A stretch of DNA of 64,000 bases from Gemmatimonadota bacterium (lineage in GTDB: Bacteria; Gemmatimonadota; Gemmatimonadetes; Longimicrobiales; Gaopeijiaceae), in NCBI GenBank assembly GCA_022826005.1, contig JAJDVT010000075.1, forward strand, positions 62,001 to 126,000. Direction: 5' to 3'. The notes under the pieces were generated by a model. That model did not search any database, was not told the DNA's origin, and saw only the letters and a program-made list of their open reading frames with translations. Positions 2,741-30,919 of the stretch are shown here, in pieces; positions within the stretch are counted from its first letter, which is position 1; each line of letters starts with the position of its first letter. The position numbers and the translations under genes were made by a program.

Positions 2741-3547
2741 TCAGCCGTACCGCCCCTCGATGTAGTCCGCGGTCTCCGTGTGCTCCGGCGCCAGGAACAG
2801 CTCCTCGGTGCGCCCGTGCTCGACGATCCGGCCCAGCAGCATGAAGACGCACTCGTCCGACGCCCGCCGCGCCTGGGCCATGTTGTGCGTGACGATGAGG
2901 ATCGTATAGTCGCCCCGCAGCTGCCAGATCATCTCCTCGACGGCCTCGGTGCCGGCCGGATCAAGCGCCGAACAGGGCTCGTCCATCAGCAGCACCTCGG
3001 GCTTCACCGGCAGGAGCCTCGCGATGCACAGCTTCTGCTGCTCTTCGAGGGAAAGGCCGGTCGCGGGCCTGTCCAGGCGGTCCTTGACCGCGTCCCAGAG
3101 GAGCACCTGGCGCAGCGCGGACTCCAGCACCTCGTCCTCCTCGGCGCGGGCCACCTTCCGCAGTCGCGCCTCGTGAAGGCGGAAGCCGAAGAGCACGTTG
3201 TCCCGGACCGAGATCGGGAGCGGATTGGGGCGCTGGAAGACCATGCCGACCTGCTTGCGCACCTGCACGATCTCGACGTCGTCGCCGAAGATGTCGTGAC
3301 CCAGCACGTAAACGCTGCCGGTGGTGCGCACGTACCCCAGCCGTTCGATGATGCGGTTGCAGGTGCGCAGCACCGTGGTCTTTCCACACCCGGAGGGGCC
3401 GATCATCGAGGTGATGATCCCCTTCTTCACCCCGAGGTCGACATCGAAGAGGGCCTGGAAGTCGCCGTACCAGAGGTTGAGGCCCCGGGTCTCGATGGCG
3501 AAGGCTCCCGTGGACGGATACCCCACACTGCTCTCCCCGTCAGCCAT
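2741..3547 (-). CDS. pstB: Phosphate ABC transporter ATP-binding protein PstB, first paralogue (degenerate signature motif)
   Basis: 268 residues, normal PstB length. Walker A GPSGCGKT (about residue 45), Q-loop GMVFQRPNPLPISVRDNV, Walker B VLLMDEPCSALDP and switch-histidine VTHNMAQA are all canonical. The ABC signature, normally LSGGQQQRLCIAR in PstB, reads LSLEEQQKLCIAR, so both glycines are lost. Since a signature works in trans on the partner's ATP site, this defect would disable the site formed with the Walker motifs of the other PstB. It is the last gene of the pst operon and overlaps the upstream pstB2 by eight bases. Function as one half of a heterodimeric motor is inference from the paired defects. 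Confidence 0.93.
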   Translation of the reverse strand: MADGESSVGYPSTGAFAIETRGLNLWYGDFQALFDVDLGVKKGIITSMIGPSGCGKTTVLRTCNRIIERLGYVRTTGSVYVLGHDIFGDDVEIVQVRKQVGMVFQRPNPLPISVRDNVLFGFRLHEARLRKVARAEEDEVLESALRQVLLWDAVKDRLDRPATGLSLEEQQKLCIARLLPVKPEVLLMDEPCSALDPAGTEAVEEMIWQLRGDYTILIVTHNMAQARRASDECVFMLLGRIVEHGRTEELFLAPEHTETADYIEGRYG

Positions 3548-4355
3548 AGCGTCCCTCGATGTATCCGGTGGTGCGCTCGTCCTTCACGTTCCCTTCAAAG
3601 AGATCCTCGGTGGCCCCGATTTCGACCAATTCGCCCGTCAGAAAGAACGCCGTCCGGTCCGCCAGACGGCGCGCCTGCTGCACAAGGTTCGTGACCAGCA
3701 CGATCGTCAGTTCCGAGCGCAGGTCCTTGAGCACGTCCTCGATCCGCATCGTGGTGACCGGATCCACGGCGATCGAGAACTCGTCCAGGAGCAGAAGTTC
3801 GGGCTCCTGCGAAAGCGCACGCGCGATCGTCAGGCGCTGCTGCTGACCCCCGGAGAGCAGACTGCCGAGGGAGCCGAGCCGGTCCTTCACCTCGTCCCAG
3901 AGGGCGGCGCGGGTGAGGCACCGCTCGACGACTTCGTCGAGTTGCGCCTTCTTGCGGATCCCGCGCAGGCGCGGCGAGAAGGCCACATTGTCGTAGACGC
4001 TGAGGGGCAGTCCCACAGGGAGCGGCAACACGACGCCGATCCGGCTGCGCAACGCATACAGGTTGCGCCAGTCGTTGACGTCCTTGCCGTTGATGTGGAT
4101 GCTCCCCCGCACCTCCATCCCCGTGGTGAAGTCGTCCATGCGGTTGAGCGCGCGCAGGAACGAGGTCTTGCCACTGTTGGCCGGCCCGATGATGCCGAAG
4201 ATCTCGTGCCGGTAGATGTCGAAGGAGGCGTCCCGCAGCGCGGGCTTGCCGCCGTAGCTGATGCCCAGATCCCGGACCTCGATGATCGGCGGCCCATCGT
4301 AGAGCGGACCGAAGCTACTGGGCCGTGGCTGCGCCAGGCCCACCCCGTCTACCAC
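3540..4355 (-). CDS. pstB: Phosphate ABC transporter ATP-binding protein PstB, second paralogue (degenerate Q-, D- and H-loops)
   Basis: About 271 residues. Walker A GPANSGKT (about residue 56) and the signature LLSGGQQQRLTIAR (about residue 165) are intact. The Q-loop GMVFQ reads GVVLP, Walker B and D-loop read LLLLDEFSIAVDP instead of DEPTSALDP, and the switch histidine is Asn (IVLVTNLVQQA). The catalytic Glu of Walker B is present. This is the mirror image of the neighbouring paralogue, which keeps Q-, D- and H-loops but loses the signature. The start chosen is GTG 4355, overlapping the pstA stop; GTG 4343 is also possible. It overlaps the next pstB by eight bases (ATGGCTGA). Confidence 0.9.
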   Translation of the reverse strand: MVDGVGLAQPRPSSFGPLYDGPPIIEVRDLGISYGGKPALRDASFDIYRHEIFGIIGPANSGKTSFLRALNRMDDFTTGMEVRGSIHINGKDVNDWRNLYALRSRIGVVLPLPVGLPLSVYDNVAFSPRLRGIRKKAQLDEVVERCLTRAALWDEVKDRLGSLGSLLSGGQQQRLTIARALSQEPELLLLDEFSIAVDPVTTMRIEDVLKDLRSELTIVLVTNLVQQARRLADRTAFFLTGELVEIGATEDLFEGNVKDERTTGYIEGRYG

Positions 4356-24013: not shown

Positions 24014-25968
24014 TGTCGGAATCTGTCCCTGGCGCTTCCGGGGCTGCCCTCGGCGGGTTTGCGAGCGCGGACGCCACGGCCCCCGGTGCCGGTGCCGGCG
24101 ACATCCCCGCGAGCCCCAACGGCGGCCCTCCTGCGCACCGCATCAACGACCTCGCCTTCAAGATCGGGACGGTCAACGGGACCGGGTCGGCCAGCGCCAA
24201 CGGCCTGCTGCGCAGCGCGATCTTCCGGATGGGGATCCCCGTGTCTGGGAAGAACCTCTTTCCGTCGAACATCCAGGGGCTGCCGACGTGGTACGAGATC
24301 CGTGCGAACGGCAAGGGACACACGGCGCGCACCGCCCGCTTCGACCTCACCGTCGCGATGAACCCGGCGACCTACAAACGTGACATCGAGGAGGTCACGA
24401 CGGGCGGCTGGGTCCTGCACGACTCGAGCTGGCCGCTGCCGCGCGACCTGAACCGCGACGACGTCACCTTCCTCGGCGTCCCGCTCGCGAAGATGACGGT
24501 CGACAACTTTCAGGGATCGCGGGTCCGGATCCTGATGAAGAACATCTGCTACGTGGGAGCGCTGGCGGCCCTGCTCAGGATCGACCTCGACATCGTCCGC
24601 GGCCTGCTGAACGAGACCTTCGCGGCCAAGGCGAAGCTGCTCGACGCGAACCAGCTCGCGATCGACCTGGGCTACGACTACGCGATGAAGCACTTCGACT
24701 GCCCGCTCCCCGTCCACCTCGAGCCGATGGACGGCAACCGCGACTCGATCGTGATCGACGGGAACACGGCGGCGGCGCTGGGGTGCGTCTACGCGGGCGC
24801 GACGGTCGCCGCGTGGTACCCCATCACGCCGTCCACCTCGCTGGTCGACGCCTTCACCGCCTTCTGCCACCAGTTCCGCAAGGACCCCGAGACGGGGAAG
24901 AACCGCTTCGCGATCATCCAAGCCGAGGACGAGCTGGCGGCCGCGGGGATGGTGATCGGGGCCGCGTGGGCGGGGGCCCGCGCGTTTACATCGACGAGCG
25001 GGGCCGGCCTGTCGCTGATGAGCGAGTTCATCGGGCTGGCGTACTACGCGGAGATCCCTTCCGTGTTCTTCGACGTGCAGCGGGTGGGGCCGTCGACGGG
25101 GATGCCGACGCGGACGCAGCAGGGTGACATCCAGTTCGCGGCGTACGCTTCGCACGGGGACACGCGGCACGTCGTCATCTTCCCGGCGAATCCGCACGAG
25201 TGCTTCGAGATGGCGGTGGAGGCGTTCGACCTGGCGGAGCGGTTCCAGACGCCGGTCTTCGTGCTGACCGACTTGGACATCGGGATGAACGACTGGGTCG
25301 TGCCGAAGCTCGAATGGGACGATTCCTACCGGCCGGATCGCGGCAAGGTGCTGACCGCGGAGGAGCTGGAGGAGGCGACGGGCCCCTTCCACCGCTACCT
25401 GGACGTGGACGGCGACGGGATCCCCTGGCGGACGCTGCCTGGGGTGCACCCAAAGGGCGCCTACCTGACGCGCGGCTCGGGCCACGACCGGTACGGCAAC
25501 TACACCGAGGACTCGGAGCCGTACGCGGATGTGCTGGCGCGCGTGGGGCGGAAGATCGACGGAGCGGCGCAGCATCTGCCCGCGCCCGAGATCAGGCTTG
25601 CGGAGGGCGCGGGGATCGGGCTGGTGACGATCGGGGGGTGCCGCGGGGCGGTGCTGGAGGCGGTGGACGAGCTGGCCGAGCGCGGGATCGCGGCCAACTA
25701 CATGCGCGTCCGCGCCTTCCCGTTCCACCCCGATGTCGAGACGTTCCTGGCCGGCCATGACGTGAACTTCGTGGTGGAGCAGAACCGGGACGGGCAACTC
25801 AGGAAGCTGCTGATCGCGGAGACGCAAGCCATGAAGGAGTCGCTGGTGTCGATCCTGTACTACGGGGGATATCCGATGAGCTGTCATCACGTGATGGACG
25901 GGTTGGCGGCCCATATGGACATCGGATCGCCCGCCGCGGCCGCCCAGCCCAGCGGAGTCGCCCCATGA
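24013..25968 (+). CDS. 2-oxoacid:acceptor oxidoreductase, fused gamma-alpha subunit (KorA-like)
   Basis: 651 residues. Residues about 35-230 are the gamma (catalytic, CoA-interacting) domain (FKIGTVNGTGSASANGLLRS); about 235-650 are the alpha domain with the pyrimidine-binding YPITPSTSLVDAF and TSTSGAGLSLMSEFIGLAYY. Such enzymes interconvert 2-oxoacids such as 2-oxoglutarate with acyl-CoA, CO2 and reduced carrier. The first 35 residues are Ala/Gly/Pro-rich. It overlaps the beta subunit start by four bases (ATGA). Confidence 0.92.
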   Translation: MSESVPGASGAALGGFASADATAPGAGAGDIPASPNGGPPAHRINDLAFKIGTVNGTGSASANGLLRSAIFRMGIPVSGKNLFPSNIQGLPTWYEIRANGKGHTARTARFDLTVAMNPATYKRDIEEVTTGGWVLHDSSWPLPRDLNRDDVTFLGVPLAKMTVDNFQGSRVRILMKNICYVGALAALLRIDLDIVRGLLNETFAAKAKLLDANQLAIDLGYDYAMKHFDCPLPVHLEPMDGNRDSIVIDGNTAAALGCVYAGATVAAWYPITPSTSLVDAFTAFCHQFRKDPETGKNRFAIIQAEDELAAAGMVIGAAWAGARAFTSTSGAGLSLMSEFIGLAYYAEIPSVFFDVQRVGPSTGMPTRTQQGDIQFAAYASHGDTRHVVIFPANPHECFEMAVEAFDLAERFQTPVFVLTDLDIGMNDWVVPKLEWDDSYRPDRGKVLTAEELEEATGPFHRYLDVDGDGIPWRTLPGVHPKGAYLTRGSGHDRYGNYTEDSEPYADVLARVGRKIDGAAQHLPAPEIRLAEGAGIGLVTIGGCRGAVLEAVDELAERGIAANYMRVRAFPFHPDVETFLAGHDVNFVVEQNRDGQLRKLLIAETQAMKESLVSILYYGGYPMSCHHVMDGLAAHMDIGSPAAAAQPSGVAP

Positions 25969-27035
25969 CCTACATCAAGAAGCCGCGCATCCACCACCCG
26001 GGCCTGACCCGCAACCGGCTGGGTCTCACCCGCCGCGACTACGAGGGCACGATGTCCACGCTGTGCGCCGGGTGCGGCCACGACTCGATCACGGCGGCGA
26101 TCATCGAGGCCTTCTGGGAGTTGGAGATCGCGCCCCACGAGGTGGCCAAGACGTCGGGGATCGGGTGCAGCGGCAAGACGCCGACCTACTTCCTGAAGGA
26201 GGCGCACGGCTTCAACGGCGTGCACGGGCGCATGCCGTCGATCACGACCGGCGCGCACGCGGCCAACCGCGACCTCATCTGCATCGGGGTCTCCGGCGAC
26301 GGCGACAGCCTCTCGATCGGTATGGGCCAGTTCGCCCATGTCGTCCGCCGCAACGTGGACATGCTGTACATCATCGAGAACAACGGGGTGTACGGGCTCA
26401 CCAAGGGCCAGTTCTCGGCGTCAGCGGACCTGGGCTCGACCGCCAAGCGCGGCCAGATCAACCGCGAGCACCCCATCGACTCGGTCCTCCTGGCCCTGAA
26501 CCTGGGCGCCGGCTTCGTGGCCCGGAGCTTCTCGGGCGACAAGGAACAGCTCGTCCCCATCCTCAAGGCCGGCCTGCGCCACCGCGGCTTCGCGCTGATC
26601 GACATCATCTCGCCCTGCGTCACCTTCAACGACCACCGCGGGTCGACCAAGAGCTACCAGTACACCCGCGACAACTACAACCAGCTGGTGTACGCCGACT
26701 TCGTGCCCCCCGCCGAGGAGATCGCGGCGTCCTACGAATCCGGCGATGCCCGCTCGGTCCAGATGCACGACGGGAGCCGGATCGCGTTCCGCAAGGTACC
26801 GGAGGACTACGACCCCACCGACCGCGACGCGGTGTACGGCTACATCAGGGAGCGTCAGCGGGCGGGCGAGGTGGCGACGGGGCTGCTGTACGTGGAGGAG
26901 GCGCCGGACGCGGGTGACGAGGCAGACTTCCACGTGATTCAGGGCACGGTGGCGGAGCCGCTGGCCGGATATCCGTTCGAGGGGCTGTGTCCGGGGGCGG
27001 AGAGGCTCGAGGAATTGCAGGGGCGGTTTCGGTAG
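25965..27035 (+). CDS. 2-oxoacid:acceptor oxidoreductase, beta (TPP) subunit (KorB-like)
   Basis: 356 residues. Thiamine diphosphate site: LCAGCGHDSITAAIIEAFWE, GIGCSGKTPTYF, and the Mg-TPP motif GVSGDGDSLSIGMGQFAHVV with ENNGVYGLTKGQ. CAGCGH and GIGCSG are typical of 2-oxoglutarate/2-oxoacid:ferredoxin enzymes. The last 50 residues are present a second time as a remnant at 30757-30909. Confidence 0.92.
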   Translation: MTYIKKPRIHHPGLTRNRLGLTRRDYEGTMSTLCAGCGHDSITAAIIEAFWELEIAPHEVAKTSGIGCSGKTPTYFLKEAHGFNGVHGRMPSITTGAHAANRDLICIGVSGDGDSLSIGMGQFAHVVRRNVDMLYIIENNGVYGLTKGQFSASADLGSTAKRGQINREHPIDSVLLALNLGAGFVARSFSGDKEQLVPILKAGLRHRGFALIDIISPCVTFNDHRGSTKSYQYTRDNYNQLVYADFVPPAEEIAASYESGDARSVQMHDGSRIAFRKVPEDYDPTDRDAVYGYIRERQRAGEVATGLLYVEEAPDAGDEADFHVIQGTVAEPLAGYPFEGLCPGAERLEELQGRFR

Positions 27036-27096
27036 GGGGGGATCTCCAGACCGCACCGAGGTGGAGAGTGAGCCCCGTCGTGTTCACCGTCTTGCG

Positions 27097-27126: not shown

Positions 27127-28251
27127 ATGCCAATGGAATCCGCTGTCCGCGTAGGGGTGCGCCTCAAGGCGGCTCGCGATCAGTCTGGACTTACCCAGCA
27201 GCAGCTGGCTGACGCGCTGGGGCTACGGCACCGCCAGACCGTGGCGAGCATCGAAAGCGGGGAGCGCCAGCTGCGCGCGACCGAACTCGTCCGGGCCATG
27301 GATGTCCTGTCAGTCGACTTGGACTATTTCACCGACCCGTTCTTGCTGGTGGGCGAAGGACAATTCTCGTTCAGGACCAGCAAGGGCGTCGAGGCAACGG
27401 TGCTTGATCGGTTCGAGCGGCGCGCCGGGAGATGGCTGGCCATGTACCGCGAACTGTCTCGGGAACAGGGCCACCCGCCGAGCTGGCTGGGTTATAAGCT
27501 GCACCTGAGTCCGCGTTCCTCCTTCGAGGATGCCGAGGCCGCAGGTGAGGCAACGGTCAGGGCATGGAACCTTGGGTCCTATCCGGCGGGGCGGTTGCGA
27601 TCCGTGATGGAAAAGCGGCTCCGCGCACTGGTGCTGTACGTCGACATGCCACCCGGCGTATCGGGCGCGGCTTCCCAGGTGCCAGGGCTGAACTGCGCGC
27701 TGATCAATCGTCAAGAGTCGGAAGGCCGGAGGAACTTCGACCTGGCCCACGAGTTGTTCCACCTGCTCACGTGGGACGCGCTGCCGCCCGAGCGCGCAAC
27801 CGTGGTCGACAAGCGTCGGAGCGGCAAGCAATGGCGTGTGGAGCGACTGGCAGAGAAATTCGCGGCGGCGCTCCTGATGCCTGCGGCGGTCCTGAAGCCG
27901 GCCTGGGAAGTGGACACCAGTGCGGGCGAGCTGCACGACCGGATCAACGAGGTGGCCGAGCGATTCCGGGTCTCTTCGCAGGCGTGCAGGTGGCGCCTTT
28001 ACAATCTTGGGCTGCTCTCCAAGAGGGATCCAAGCGGGATCGACGACCGACGCCTCTCCCGCAACGGTAGCCTGCGGTGCCTCGATCAAGAGCCGTCCCT
28101 GTTCAGCGAGCCGTTCCTGGAGCGGCTGAGCGTGGCCCTTGACGACGGTCGGCTGTCGGTCAAGCGGGCGACGAGTCTTCTCGGGGTTTCCGTGACCAAG
28201 TTGGCGGAGATCCTGCAAGATCACGGCCATCAGACGTATTTCGAGGCTTGA
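27127..28251 (+). CDS. XRE-family regulator with ImmA/IrrE-type M78 metallopeptidase domain
   Basis: 374 residues. N-terminal HTH (RLKAARDQSGLTQQQLADAL, about 10-65), a linker, then the zinc-protease motif FDLAHELFHLLTW (HELFH, about residue 211) with the downstream Glu-containing helix AEKFAAALLMPAA. Proteins of this build are one-component regulators or antitoxin-like partners that cleave themselves or a repressor. The next gene, eleven bases on, is a shortened PIN protein, so this was probably the controlling half of a two-gene stress or toxin-antitoxin module. Confidence 0.87.
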   Translation: MPMESAVRVGVRLKAARDQSGLTQQQLADALGLRHRQTVASIESGERQLRATELVRAMDVLSVDLDYFTDPFLLVGEGQFSFRTSKGVEATVLDRFERRAGRWLAMYRELSREQGHPPSWLGYKLHLSPRSSFEDAEAAGEATVRAWNLGSYPAGRLRSVMEKRLRALVLYVDMPPGVSGAASQVPGLNCALINRQESEGRRNFDLAHELFHLLTWDALPPERATVVDKRRSGKQWRVERLAEKFAAALLMPAAVLKPAWEVDTSAGELHDRINEVAERFRVSSQACRWRLYNLGLLSKRDPSGIDDRRLSRNGSLRCLDQEPSLFSEPFLERLSVALDDGRLSVKRATSLLGVSVTKLAEILQDHGHQTYFEA

Positions 28252-28261
28252 GGGTATTCTT

Positions 28262-28429
28262 GTGGCTGCGGCTGGCATCGTGCTGGTCGACACGATGATC
28301 ATTATCGAAGCGGTTGAGACAGGTTGCTGGAACGCGATCACGGGCCAGAGGCGATTGGTCACAGTGGTCGAGTGCGAGCGAATCCTGCGCGAGTGGCGGA
28401 CGTCATTGTTGCTTGGGACTGGCCTTTGA
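28262..28429 (+). pseudogene. Truncated PIN-domain partner of the XRE-M78 protein
   Basis: GTG start; 55 residues, VAAAGIVLVDTMIIIEAVET then GCWNAITGQRRLVTVVECER. This is the first strand and helix of a PIN RNase (acidic D in VDT, E in IIEA) as found downstream of XRE-M78 genes; full-length partners are much longer. The reading ends at TGA 28427, overlapping the 3' end of the convergent methyltransferase gene, so the rest was lost at a rearrangement there. Confidence 0.6.
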
Positions 28430-29446
28430 GCTCTTGCGGGCCAGAAAGAAGAACATCGGGGTGAAGATCCCCGTCTTGCCACCCTCAACCAGCGCGTCCG
28501 CCGTCCTGTTCAAGAGCGAGCTGACCGCGGCAGCGCCATCGGGGAATACGCGTAACTTCTCGCCGACCCTCAGGACCCGATTCGTCAAGGCGCGTCCAAT
28601 GGGCGTGCGCGGGATGCTCCTGAGGCTGAAGTCGCGACCCTGCAGGGCACGATACCAGGGCGTGGTCGGGTCCGACGCGGAGGCACGGTCGCCGGACTCG
28701 ACGACTTCGAATCCGGCCGCGCGCAGTGCCGCATCGATCTCAGGCGCCAGTGGGAGGTCCGGAAGCGCATTCCCCACCACGATATCCCCCTTGACCCGCA
28801 TGTGCTCTGCGTCCCGTGGATCGAACGCCTCGGTAAGGCACCAGTCGTAGCCCGCAAGGCTGGCCCCCGGCCGCAGGACGCGGAAGATCTCCCGGAACGC
28901 CGCTGCCTTTTGCGGTGCATGCGGCATGGACTCGATGGAGATCGCGGCATCGTAGCGGTTGTCGCCGTCGGGGATCCGCATGTAGTCGCCGTGGATGAAA
29001 CGGCACAGGAATTCGACATCCCGGGTGTGCGCTTTCGCACGCTCGATCTGGTAGGCGTTGTTGTTGAGCCCGACGAAGCCGGCCCCGGAATGGCGGGCGA
29101 GCGCGGCCATCGGCCCGCCTACGCCGCACCCCACATCGAGGACCCGCATTCCCGGTTTCAGAGTCAGCCGATCGGCCAGAAAGCGCTGGTGCCTCAGCAG
29201 CGACGCCTTGAAGCTCTCGCCCCGGCGCCGCGGAGCAAAGTGAAAGGACTGCCCCCAGCCGAACTCGTAGAAATCCGTCACCAGGTCGTAGTAGTGATTG
29301 ACGAACGACCGATAGTGCGCTCTTCTGCGCTCCAGACCGGCATCGTGAATCCCGGTGTACTCGTCGACCACGGACTTCACTTCATCCGGAGCCAGGTCCG
29401 CGAGGGAACGAGGATTCGGTTTTTGGGCAGCCGGCATACCGATCAT
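28403..29446 (-). CDS. Sterol C-24 methyltransferase homologue (Erg6/SMT family)
   Basis: 347 residues from ATG 29446, preceded by AGGGG. All the SMT landmarks are here: sterol-binding region I YDLVTDFYEFGWGQSFHF (about residue 49; yeast YEYGWGSSFHF), SAM motif MRVLDVGCGVGGPMAALARH, GLNNNAYQIERAK, region ISIESMPHAP (yeast IEATCHAP), AGYDWCLTE (yeast YEWVMTD), and the C-terminal GGKTGIFTPMFFFLARK (yeast GGKSKLFTPM). This is closer to eukaryotic SMT than to general bacterial methyltransferases. It would transfer a methyl from SAM to the sterol side chain. No other sterol gene is adjacent. Bacterial SMTs are rare. Family is near certain; substrate is inference. Confidence 0.88.
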   Translation of the reverse strand: MIGMPAAQKPNPRSLADLAPDEVKSVVDEYTGIHDAGLERRRAHYRSFVNHYYDLVTDFYEFGWGQSFHFAPRRRGESFKASLLRHQRFLADRLTLKPGMRVLDVGCGVGGPMAALARHSGAGFVGLNNNAYQIERAKAHTRDVEFLCRFIHGDYMRIPDGDNRYDAAISIESMPHAPQKAAAFREIFRVLRPGASLAGYDWCLTEAFDPRDAEHMRVKGDIVVGNALPDLPLAPEIDAALRAAGFEVVESGDRASASDPTTPWYRALQGRDFSLRSIPRTPIGRALTNRVLRVGEKLRVFPDGAAAVSSLLNRTADALVEGGKTGIFTPMFFFLARKSSKASPKQQ

Positions 29447-29610: not shown

Positions 29611-30723
29611 TCACCTTGAAGGAACGCGAATCTCCAGTCTGTGAATCGACACGATCGGATTCCCGACCTGATCGGTGTCATTGCGGACCGCCAAGCCGCC
29701 CTCCAGCAGGTCGGTGAACCGTAGCGGCATGCGTTGAGAGGCGATTACTACCCCTCGATTGAGATCTACGGCCTCCACGACGGAATTGCGGTACACGTCG
29801 CGGTCGGTGACCCTGTAGGAACGCTCATCCGGCTCCACACCCGCTCGCCACCCTTCCCCGGGCACGCTCGTCAGCACCCAAAGGGTATCGCCCACCTGTT
29901 CGATGGCGATCATTGTGGGGACGGGCGGCGTGTCGGCATCTGCCTGATACTCCCACCACACTTGAAACCACGGTGGCTCCCGATGGAATGTCTCAAGTAA
30001 CCGGCCGTCCACCGTCCACCGTTCGATCAGGTACTGATTGGTCCGCGCCGCCCAGAACGAGGCTGTGTCCGACCGGGCCAGGCGCCTCCCGTCCCTGACA
30101 TATCGATCAACGGTCAGGTCAGCGCCGTCCGCCGACCCGAAGGAGCGCGTCATGCGCCCATTCCGATCAAGCACATGAAAAGGCAGCCCCACCAGGTCTC
30201 CCCTGCGGAAGGGGGTGTTGATCAGGAGCGAGGCACCAAAGAGAAGCTCGGGTCCATCGGGAGAAAAGCTCAGCTGGAACGAGCGGGCGAACTCAAGATC
30301 GGGCGTGTAGACCGATGCAAGAAGACGGATGGGGTCCAGGACGAAAACCGAGTCGGCCTCGCCGCTCGCGATCCCTGTTATGACGGAAAACTCTCCCGGC
30401 CCCTCACCGCTACGCCCGATCCGGTGAGTGACATTTCCCGTACGGTCGAACACCCAGAAGTAGGGCCGCCGGGCGGCAACGAAATACCGGCCCTGCCGGT
30501 CCAGGGAAACGACGTTGTAGTCGTCCTCGAGCATTCCGGGGCCTTCCGCGTCGCCGAACGTTACGACCGGAACGGCAACGATCTCGCAGGCCTCGCATTC
30601 AGGCCCGGTCAGCTCGGTCTGCGAGCCGCTCTCTTGCGGGCTGGCCTCTCCCGCCGACAGGCAGATCAACGCCACGAGGGTGACCGCGCCCGCAGGGGCG
30701 GCCAACCAACCGGGCGCGGTCAT
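29611..30723 (-). CDS. Secreted 6-bladed beta-propeller protein
   Basis: 370 residues from ATG 30723, with a signal peptide (AGAVTLVALICLSAGEASPQ). The family core is DRQGRYFVAARRPYFWVFDR, then GNVTHRIGRSGEGPGEFSVI. The GEGPGEF turn marks the 6-bladed propeller family. No catalytic residues are recognisable; members are thought to bind ligands or serve as surface proteins. A korB 3'-end remnant lies directly upstream in the opposite orientation. Confidence 0.8.
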   Translation of the reverse strand: MTAPGWLAAPAGAVTLVALICLSAGEASPQESGSQTELTGPECEACEIVAVPVVTFGDAEGPGMLEDDYNVVSLDRQGRYFVAARRPYFWVFDRTGNVTHRIGRSGEGPGEFSVITGIASGEADSVFVLDPIRLLASVYTPDLEFARSFQLSFSPDGPELLFGASLLINTPFRRGDLVGLPFHVLDRNGRMTRSFGSADGADLTVDRYVRDGRRLARSDTASFWAARTNQYLIERWTVDGRLLETFHREPPWFQVWWEYQADADTPPVPTMIAIEQVGDTLWVLTSVPGEGWRAGVEPDERSYRVTDRDVYRNSVVEAVDLNRGVVIASQRMPLRFTDLLEGGLAVRNDTDQVGNPIVSIHRLEIRVPSR

Positions 30724-30756
30724 GAAGCGCAACCGTGTTCGCCGCTGTAGGAGCGA

Positions 30757-30909
30757 CTGCCGGACGTGGAGCCGGCCGCGGAAGAGGGCGAGGAAGCCGA
30801 CTTCCACGGGATCCAGGGCACGGTGGAGGAGCCGCTGGCCGGGTATCCGTTCGAGGGGCTGTGTCCAGGGGCGGAGAAGCTGGAGAGGTCACAGGTGCGG
30901 GTTCGATAG
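30757..30909 (+). pseudogene. Remnant of a korB 3' end
   Basis: The plus strand reads LPDVEPAAEEGEEADFHGIQ, GTVEEPLAGYPFEGLCPGAE, KLERSQVRVR and a TAG. This matches the last 50 codons of the intact KorB-like gene (EADFHVIQGTVAEPLAGYPF) at both protein and DNA level. No upstream part of korB is present, so it is a displaced tail of a duplicate. Confidence 0.75.
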
Positions 30910-30919
30910 GCGCGTGGAC

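What the first reader, a model, noticed from the sequence alone, without database searches (positions are those of the whole stretch)
28403..29446. A eukaryote-like sterol C-24 methyltransferase in a bacterial genome
The protein matches yeast Erg6 and plant SMT across all sterol-contact regions, not only the SAM fold: FYEFGWGQSFHF, IESMPHAP, YDWCLTE and the FTPM terminus. C-24-alkylated steranes are used as biomarkers of eukaryotes and sponges, so bacterial SMTs matter for reading the fossil record. Bacterial examples are few and mostly from uncultured groups. No squalene cyclase or other sterol gene is next to it, so the host may alkylate acquired sterols or make them from genes elsewhere.
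Basis: partly seen in the sequence, partly recalled or inferred. Interest (0 to 1): 0.8.

Follow-up and report, generated by a model that had tools for sequence, protein, structure and literature searches.

The report
Stand-alone sterol methyltransferase in sponge symbiont
The gene is a genuine sterol side-chain (C-24) methyltransferase of a kind already reported from many sponge-associated bacteria; here it sits alone in a Gemmatimonadota genome whose sterol-making gene set looks partly lost, so what it methylates is an open, testable question.

Summary
An intact 347-codon ORF (28403-29446, minus strand) matches Pfam Sterol_MT_C, keeps the aromatic Region I (YEFGWG; yeast YEYGWG) and the SAM motif, and is under purifying selection. 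It is not exceptional: its relatives form a tight bacterial clade in MAGs, largely sponge-associated, of at least nine phyla, published by Kelly 2022 (horizontally moving steroid clusters, Gemmatimonadota included) and Brown 2023 (such enzymes are active in vitro). Most relatives flank a cassette: squalene-monooxygenase/oxidosqualene-cyclase fusion, CYP51, ERG24, Rieske oxygenase, SDR. Here the gene stands alone, beside a 2-oxoacid:ferredoxin oxidoreductase gene and between two 154-bp copies of that gene's 3' end. Elsewhere the genome holds the fusion's C-terminal end (cut by a contig end), a squalene-synthase-like gene and a distant ERG24-like gene; no CYP51 or SdmA-type oxygenase was found. 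Two congeners carry the whole fusion (1,125 aa, DCTAE motif) next to a decayed CYP51. Best reading: a C-24 sterol methyltransferase acquired with the sponge-symbiont cassette and kept while the rest decayed, acting on the bacterium's own 4,4,14-trimethylsterol or on sponge or neighbour sterols.

The parts
28403..29446 (-). sterol C-24 methyltransferase (SMT/ERG6-type), 347 aa
   Evidence: dN/dS 0.17-0.26 against six Gemmatimonadota relatives
25965..27035 (+). 2-oxoacid:ferredoxin oxidoreductase beta subunit (PorB/KorB type); in a congener the SMT follows its 3' end directly
   Evidence: (synteny with L002/L126)
26883..27036 (+). 154-bp repeat, copy 1: 3' end of the porB-like gene
30757..30910 (+). 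154-bp repeat, copy 2 (82% identical): stray copy of the same 3' end on the far side of the SMT; start-to-start spacing 3,874 bp
27127..28251 (+). HTH plus M78 (ImmA/IrrE-like) peptidase gene between the repeats, absent at this place in the congener
29611..30807 (-). 6-bladed beta-propeller protein between the repeats (the 5' end as called overlaps repeat copy 2; the true start may lie further in)

Best explanation
A SAM-dependent sterol C-24 methyltransferase. It binds a Delta24 sterol, the aromatic Region I steadies the carbocation, and a methyl group from SAM goes onto C-24 (mechanism known for the family; inferred here). The gene belongs to the steroid cassette that has spread among sponge symbionts. 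In this Gemmatimonadota genus the cassette appears to have decayed: the SMO-OSC fusion survives in some species and CYP51 is a relic in those seen, while the SMT persists in two species at the porB locus. Its substrate is therefore either the bacterium's own cyclisation product (a lanosterol- or cycloartenol-like 4,4,14-trimethylsterol) or a Delta24 sterol from the sponge or its other bacteria. Shown: family, motifs, clade, purifying selection, genome context. Inferred: catalysis, substrate, order of events.
For: Sterol_MT_C well over cut-off. YEFGWG Region I; nematode C4-methyltransferases are reported to lack these aromatic residues (PMC6997595). In a careful tree it lies in a Gemmatimonadota clade (98/94) inside a bacterial clade (100/100) separate from myxobacterial SMTs. 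About 50 relatives sit beside the fusion, CYP51, ERG24, Rieske and SDR genes. SMT and fusion distances correlate over 50 loci (Mantel r 0.86, 0 of 999 permutations as high). Own genome: 109 residues of the fusion's C-terminus, 75% identical to L054, at the end of contig C79; SQS_PSY match, best NCBIfam hit squal_synth though under its cut-off. Congeners G209 and G096: full fusion of 1,125 aa, DCTAE, dN/dS 0.23 between them, with a CYP51 remnant upstream lacking its heme-cysteine loop. Bacterial SMTs from sponge metagenomes methylate desmosterol in vitro (Brown 2023).
Against: No activity data for this protein. The fusion in the host is seen only as a fragment; the contig that seems to continue it was binned with another genome. 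C79 could be a mis-binned contig (MAG contamination 3.9%), although its 369-bp fusion end is 98-99% identical to a congener's. Congener G187 has the SMT and no fusion. In Brown 2023 two of ten sponge-metagenome SMTs and two of fourteen others showed no activity on the two substrates tested.
Confidence: 0.85

Rival explanations
1. Same enzyme, but the bacterium makes no sterol: the SMT alkylates sterols taken from the sponge or from neighbouring symbionts (a sub-case of the best explanation).
For: SMT stands alone in the window; CYP51 and SdmA-type oxygenase not found in the genome; congener G187 has the SMT and no fusion; Brown 2023 argues likewise for a Chlamydiae SMT without other sterol genes.
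Against: A fusion C-terminus nearly identical to intact congener genes is in the assembly; a squalene-synthase-like gene is present.
Confidence: 0.4
2. Same enzyme acting on the bacterium's own C30 sterol (the other sub-case): the fusion makes a 4,4,14-trimethylsterol and the SMT turns it into a C31 24-methylene sterol.
For: Intact fusion with DCTAE motif under purifying selection in congeners G209 and G096; the window's genome holds the SMT and a piece of the fusion while CYP51 and SdmA were not found; a distant ERG24-like reductase is present.
Against: Within the genus the fusion occurs in 4 of 23 genomes and this SMT type in only 2, and only the window's genome has both.
Confidence: 0.35
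3. A different methyltransferase (nematode-type sterol C4-methyltransferase, tocopherol/quinone methyltransferase or natural-product methyltransferase) that merely shares the fold.
For: Closest solved structures are natural-product and sarcosine/dimethylglycine methyltransferases.
Against: Sterol_MT_C match; 24-SMT Region I present; all NCBIfam hits far below cut-offs; cassette neighbourhood of the clade. No sterol methyltransferase was recognised among the solved structures listed, so the structural neighbours are not informative.
Confidence: 0.05
4. Dead or decaying gene left over from the cassette.
For: The rest of the cassette has decayed in the genus.
Against: Open reading frame intact; dN/dS 0.17-0.26; all sequence motifs kept.
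Confidence: 0.07

Closest known systems
Bacterial SMTs of sponge symbionts, Brown et al. 2023 (PMC10070321)
   Same: Same family and habitat; several tested enzymes make 24-methyl, 24-ethyl or 24-isopropyl sterols in vitro
   Different: The sequences they tested were not available here, so which is closest is unknown; theirs often lie in sterol clusters, this one does not
Clusters of steroid genes (CSGs) in Ircinia symbionts, Kelly et al. 2022 (PMC9531527)
   Same: SMT flanking ERG24-CYP51-LSS clusters in 10 phyla including Gemmatimonadota, with evidence of horizontal transfer and purifying selection
   Different: They report SMT as a common flank, and scattered genes too; here it is an orphan in a genus with a CYP51 relic. 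Their text does not mention the monooxygenase half of the LSS gene; Brown 2023 mentions fused SMO/OSC in its methods
Yeast Erg6 (24-SMT)
   Different: Bacterial clade; Region I Y83 is F; substrate unknown

Membership tests
Sterol C-24 methyltransferase (SMT/Erg6) | Sterol_MT_C domain after a SAM-binding domain | tested here: met
   72.1 bits, cut-off 21.7
Sterol C-24 methyltransferase (SMT/Erg6) | Aromatic Region I (Y81EYGWG86 in Erg6) | tested here: met
   YEFGWG; significance from PMC6997595
Sterol C-24 methyltransferase (SMT/Erg6) | Groups with SMTs, not with other methyltransferases, in a tree | tested here: inconclusive
   Groups with bacterial SMT-like proteins of sterol clusters; no panel of eukaryotic SMTs or of tocopherol/quinone methyltransferases was included
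Sterol C-24 methyltransferase (SMT/Erg6) | Methylates a Delta24 sterol at C-24 | not testable with these tools
   needs an enzyme assay
Nematode sterol C4-methyltransferase | Region I lacks the signature aromatic residues | tested here: not met
   YEFGWG present
Tocopherol/quinone and other NCBIfam small-molecule methyltransferases | Score over curated cut-off | tested here: not met
   best 60.9 bits against a cut-off of 155
Sponge-symbiont steroid gene cluster (CSG) | SMT adjacent to ERG24-CYP51-OSC | tested here: not met
   no such genes in the window
Sponge-symbiont SMT clade | Nested in the clade of cassette-borne SMTs | tested here: met

The most novel reading that the evidence does not exclude
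A Gemmatimonadota sponge symbiont with a stripped-down sterol pathway (squalene monooxygenase-cyclase fusion plus SMT, without C-14 and C-4 demethylation) makes a 24-alkylated 4,4,14-trimethylsterol, or upgrades sponge sterols, so that side-chain alkylated steranes could stem from a bacterium without a full sterol pathway.
Probability: 0.3. Interest if true: 0.6.

Novelty: new member of a known kind. Interest (0 to 1): 0.4.

Why it matters
C-24 alkylated steranes, 24-isopropylcholestane above all, are read as signs of early algae and sponges. Each further bacterial lineage with an intact SMT widens the list of possible sources. This case adds that the SMT may outlive most of the cassette it came with, so a genome without a sterol cluster may still alkylate sterols.

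Tried and rejected
Mobile carriage: no match in the plasmid, phage or viral collections. Eukaryotic contamination: rejected, since the SMT sits beside 5 kb of synteny with a congener and among bacterial genes. In-frame stops reported in some relatives are only the natural 3' ends caught by the alignment. The structure model (mean pLDDT 74) and Foldseek gave only the general class I methyltransferase fold. Promoter scan found nothing. Look-up of Hoshino and Gaucher 2021 failed.

Full report
Observation. The ORF at 28403-29446 (minus strand) is intact, 347 aa, starting at ATG 29446. Pfam gives Sterol_MT_C at E 4e-20 after a SAM-binding domain; no NCBIfam methyltransferase model comes near its cut-off. 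It is the only Sterol_MT_C match in the host genome. PMC6997595 ties this aromatic Region I to C-24 chemistry and says nematode C4-methyltransferases lack it.

Relatives. One scan of 84,980 species genomes returned 79 loci, 51-94% identical, in MAGs titled Gemmatimonadetes, Alpha- and Gammaproteobacteria, Nitrospira, Chloroflexi, Acidobacteria, Binatota, Rhodothermales, Opitutales, Acidimicrobiia and, further off, Myxococcota. Some titles name sponges (e.g. L045, L046); for most the sponge origin is from my knowledge of the bin names and was not checked one by one. In a 64-row careful tree the window SMT is sister to L002 (100/99) in a Gemmatimonadota clade (98/94), inside a clade of 58 rows (100/100) separate from the myxobacterial rows (bootstrap not fully settled). 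Phylum labels need 14 changes where 8 is the least, which fits transfer between phyla but does not prove it. dN/dS against six Gemmatimonadota relatives is 0.17-0.26. The phylum survey found close relatives (78-93%) in four of 395 genomes besides the host, and a second, 42-48% identical type in others.

Cassette. In about 50 of these loci the SMT lies beside a conserved set: a protein of about 1,115 aa or more joining squalene epoxidase and squalene/oxidosqualene cyclase domains, a P450 (CYP51 position), an ERG4/ERG24 reductase, a Rieske oxygenase, an SDR and sometimes ERG2. SMT and fusion protein distances correlate (Mantel r 0.86), so they have largely travelled together. This matches the CSG of Kelly 2022; Brown 2023 mentions fused SMO/OSC in its methods and shows that bacterial SMTs work in vitro. 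The cassette, its spread and the enzyme activity are therefore known.

The host. No other cassette gene is in the window. Elsewhere in the genome: the last 109 residues of the fusion at the end of contig C79, a squalene-synthase-like gene on C137, a 34%-identical ERG4/ERG24-family gene on C81; CYP51 only as generic 26% P450s; no SdmA-type match. PF08491 alone was also negative, as expected if the N-terminal half is not in the bin. C79 has GC and tetranucleotide make-up near the window's (correlation 0.85-0.90 against 0.88-0.94 within the window), not decisive by itself.

Congeners. Of 23 genomes of the genus, four hold the fusion (G000 as a fragment, G133 cut, G209 and G096 whole); two hold the sponge-type SMT (G000, G187). 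The 369 bp at the end of C79 are 98.6% and 97.6% identical to G209 and G096. The whole fusions are 1,125 aa with DCTAE and dN/dS 0.23. Just upstream is a CYP51 remnant with the heme-cysteine loop gone. A 3,698-bp contig binned in G035 (another family) carries a fusion very close to these (dN 0.017) and begins with exactly the last 141 bp of C79. Related MAG contigs are named k141, so this looks like a k=141 assembly overlap, the missing part of the host's gene binned elsewhere; that the two come from one assembly is inference.

Local anatomy. In L002 the SMT follows the 3' end of the porB-like gene directly. In the window a 154-bp copy of that 3' end (82%) recurs at 30757-30910, so that an HTH/M78-peptidase gene, the SMT and a beta-propeller gene lie between two copies.

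Mechanism. The most likely reaction is transfer of the SAM methyl group to C-24 of a Delta24 sterol; whether the enzyme stops at one methyl or goes on to ethyl and isopropyl cannot be read from the sequence (Brown 2023 states that predictive residues are not yet known). The substrate is the open point: own trimethylsterol or acquired sterol.

Verdict. What is left of interest is the orphan state: an SMT under selection in a genus whose CYP51 has decayed.

Noticed in passing
L115:1501-2397, L117, L118, L016:6103-6984, L022:11303-12196, L011, L015: A second, divergent Sterol_MT_C-positive methyltransferase (about 44% identical) in many Gemmatimonadota and as a second copy in Nitrospira; its Region I reads LMVFHWGES or LMVYHWGES, without the YExGWG pattern, on a long branch. 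Substrate unknown.
   Followed up: partly
L018:2333-3265 and 3422-4333; L027; L034; L112-L114: A third SMT group (about 44-48% identical), in L018 two copies directly after the main SMT: three SMTs in tandem in one alphaproteobacterial cassette.
   Followed up: partly
window 26883-27036 and 30757-30910: 154-bp direct repeat made of the 3' end of the porB-like gene, 82% identical, flanking the SMT region.
   Followed up: partly
L083 1-141 and L106 12703-12843: Two contigs binned in different MAGs share exactly 141 identical bases at their ends, probably a k=141 assembly overlap and so a binning error in public MAGs.
   Followed up: partly
L038:11017-12646: A Gemmatimonadota relative with a fusion fragment 2 kb from its SMT, split between frames (aa 572-837 and 818-1113): another decaying cassette.
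   Followed up: no
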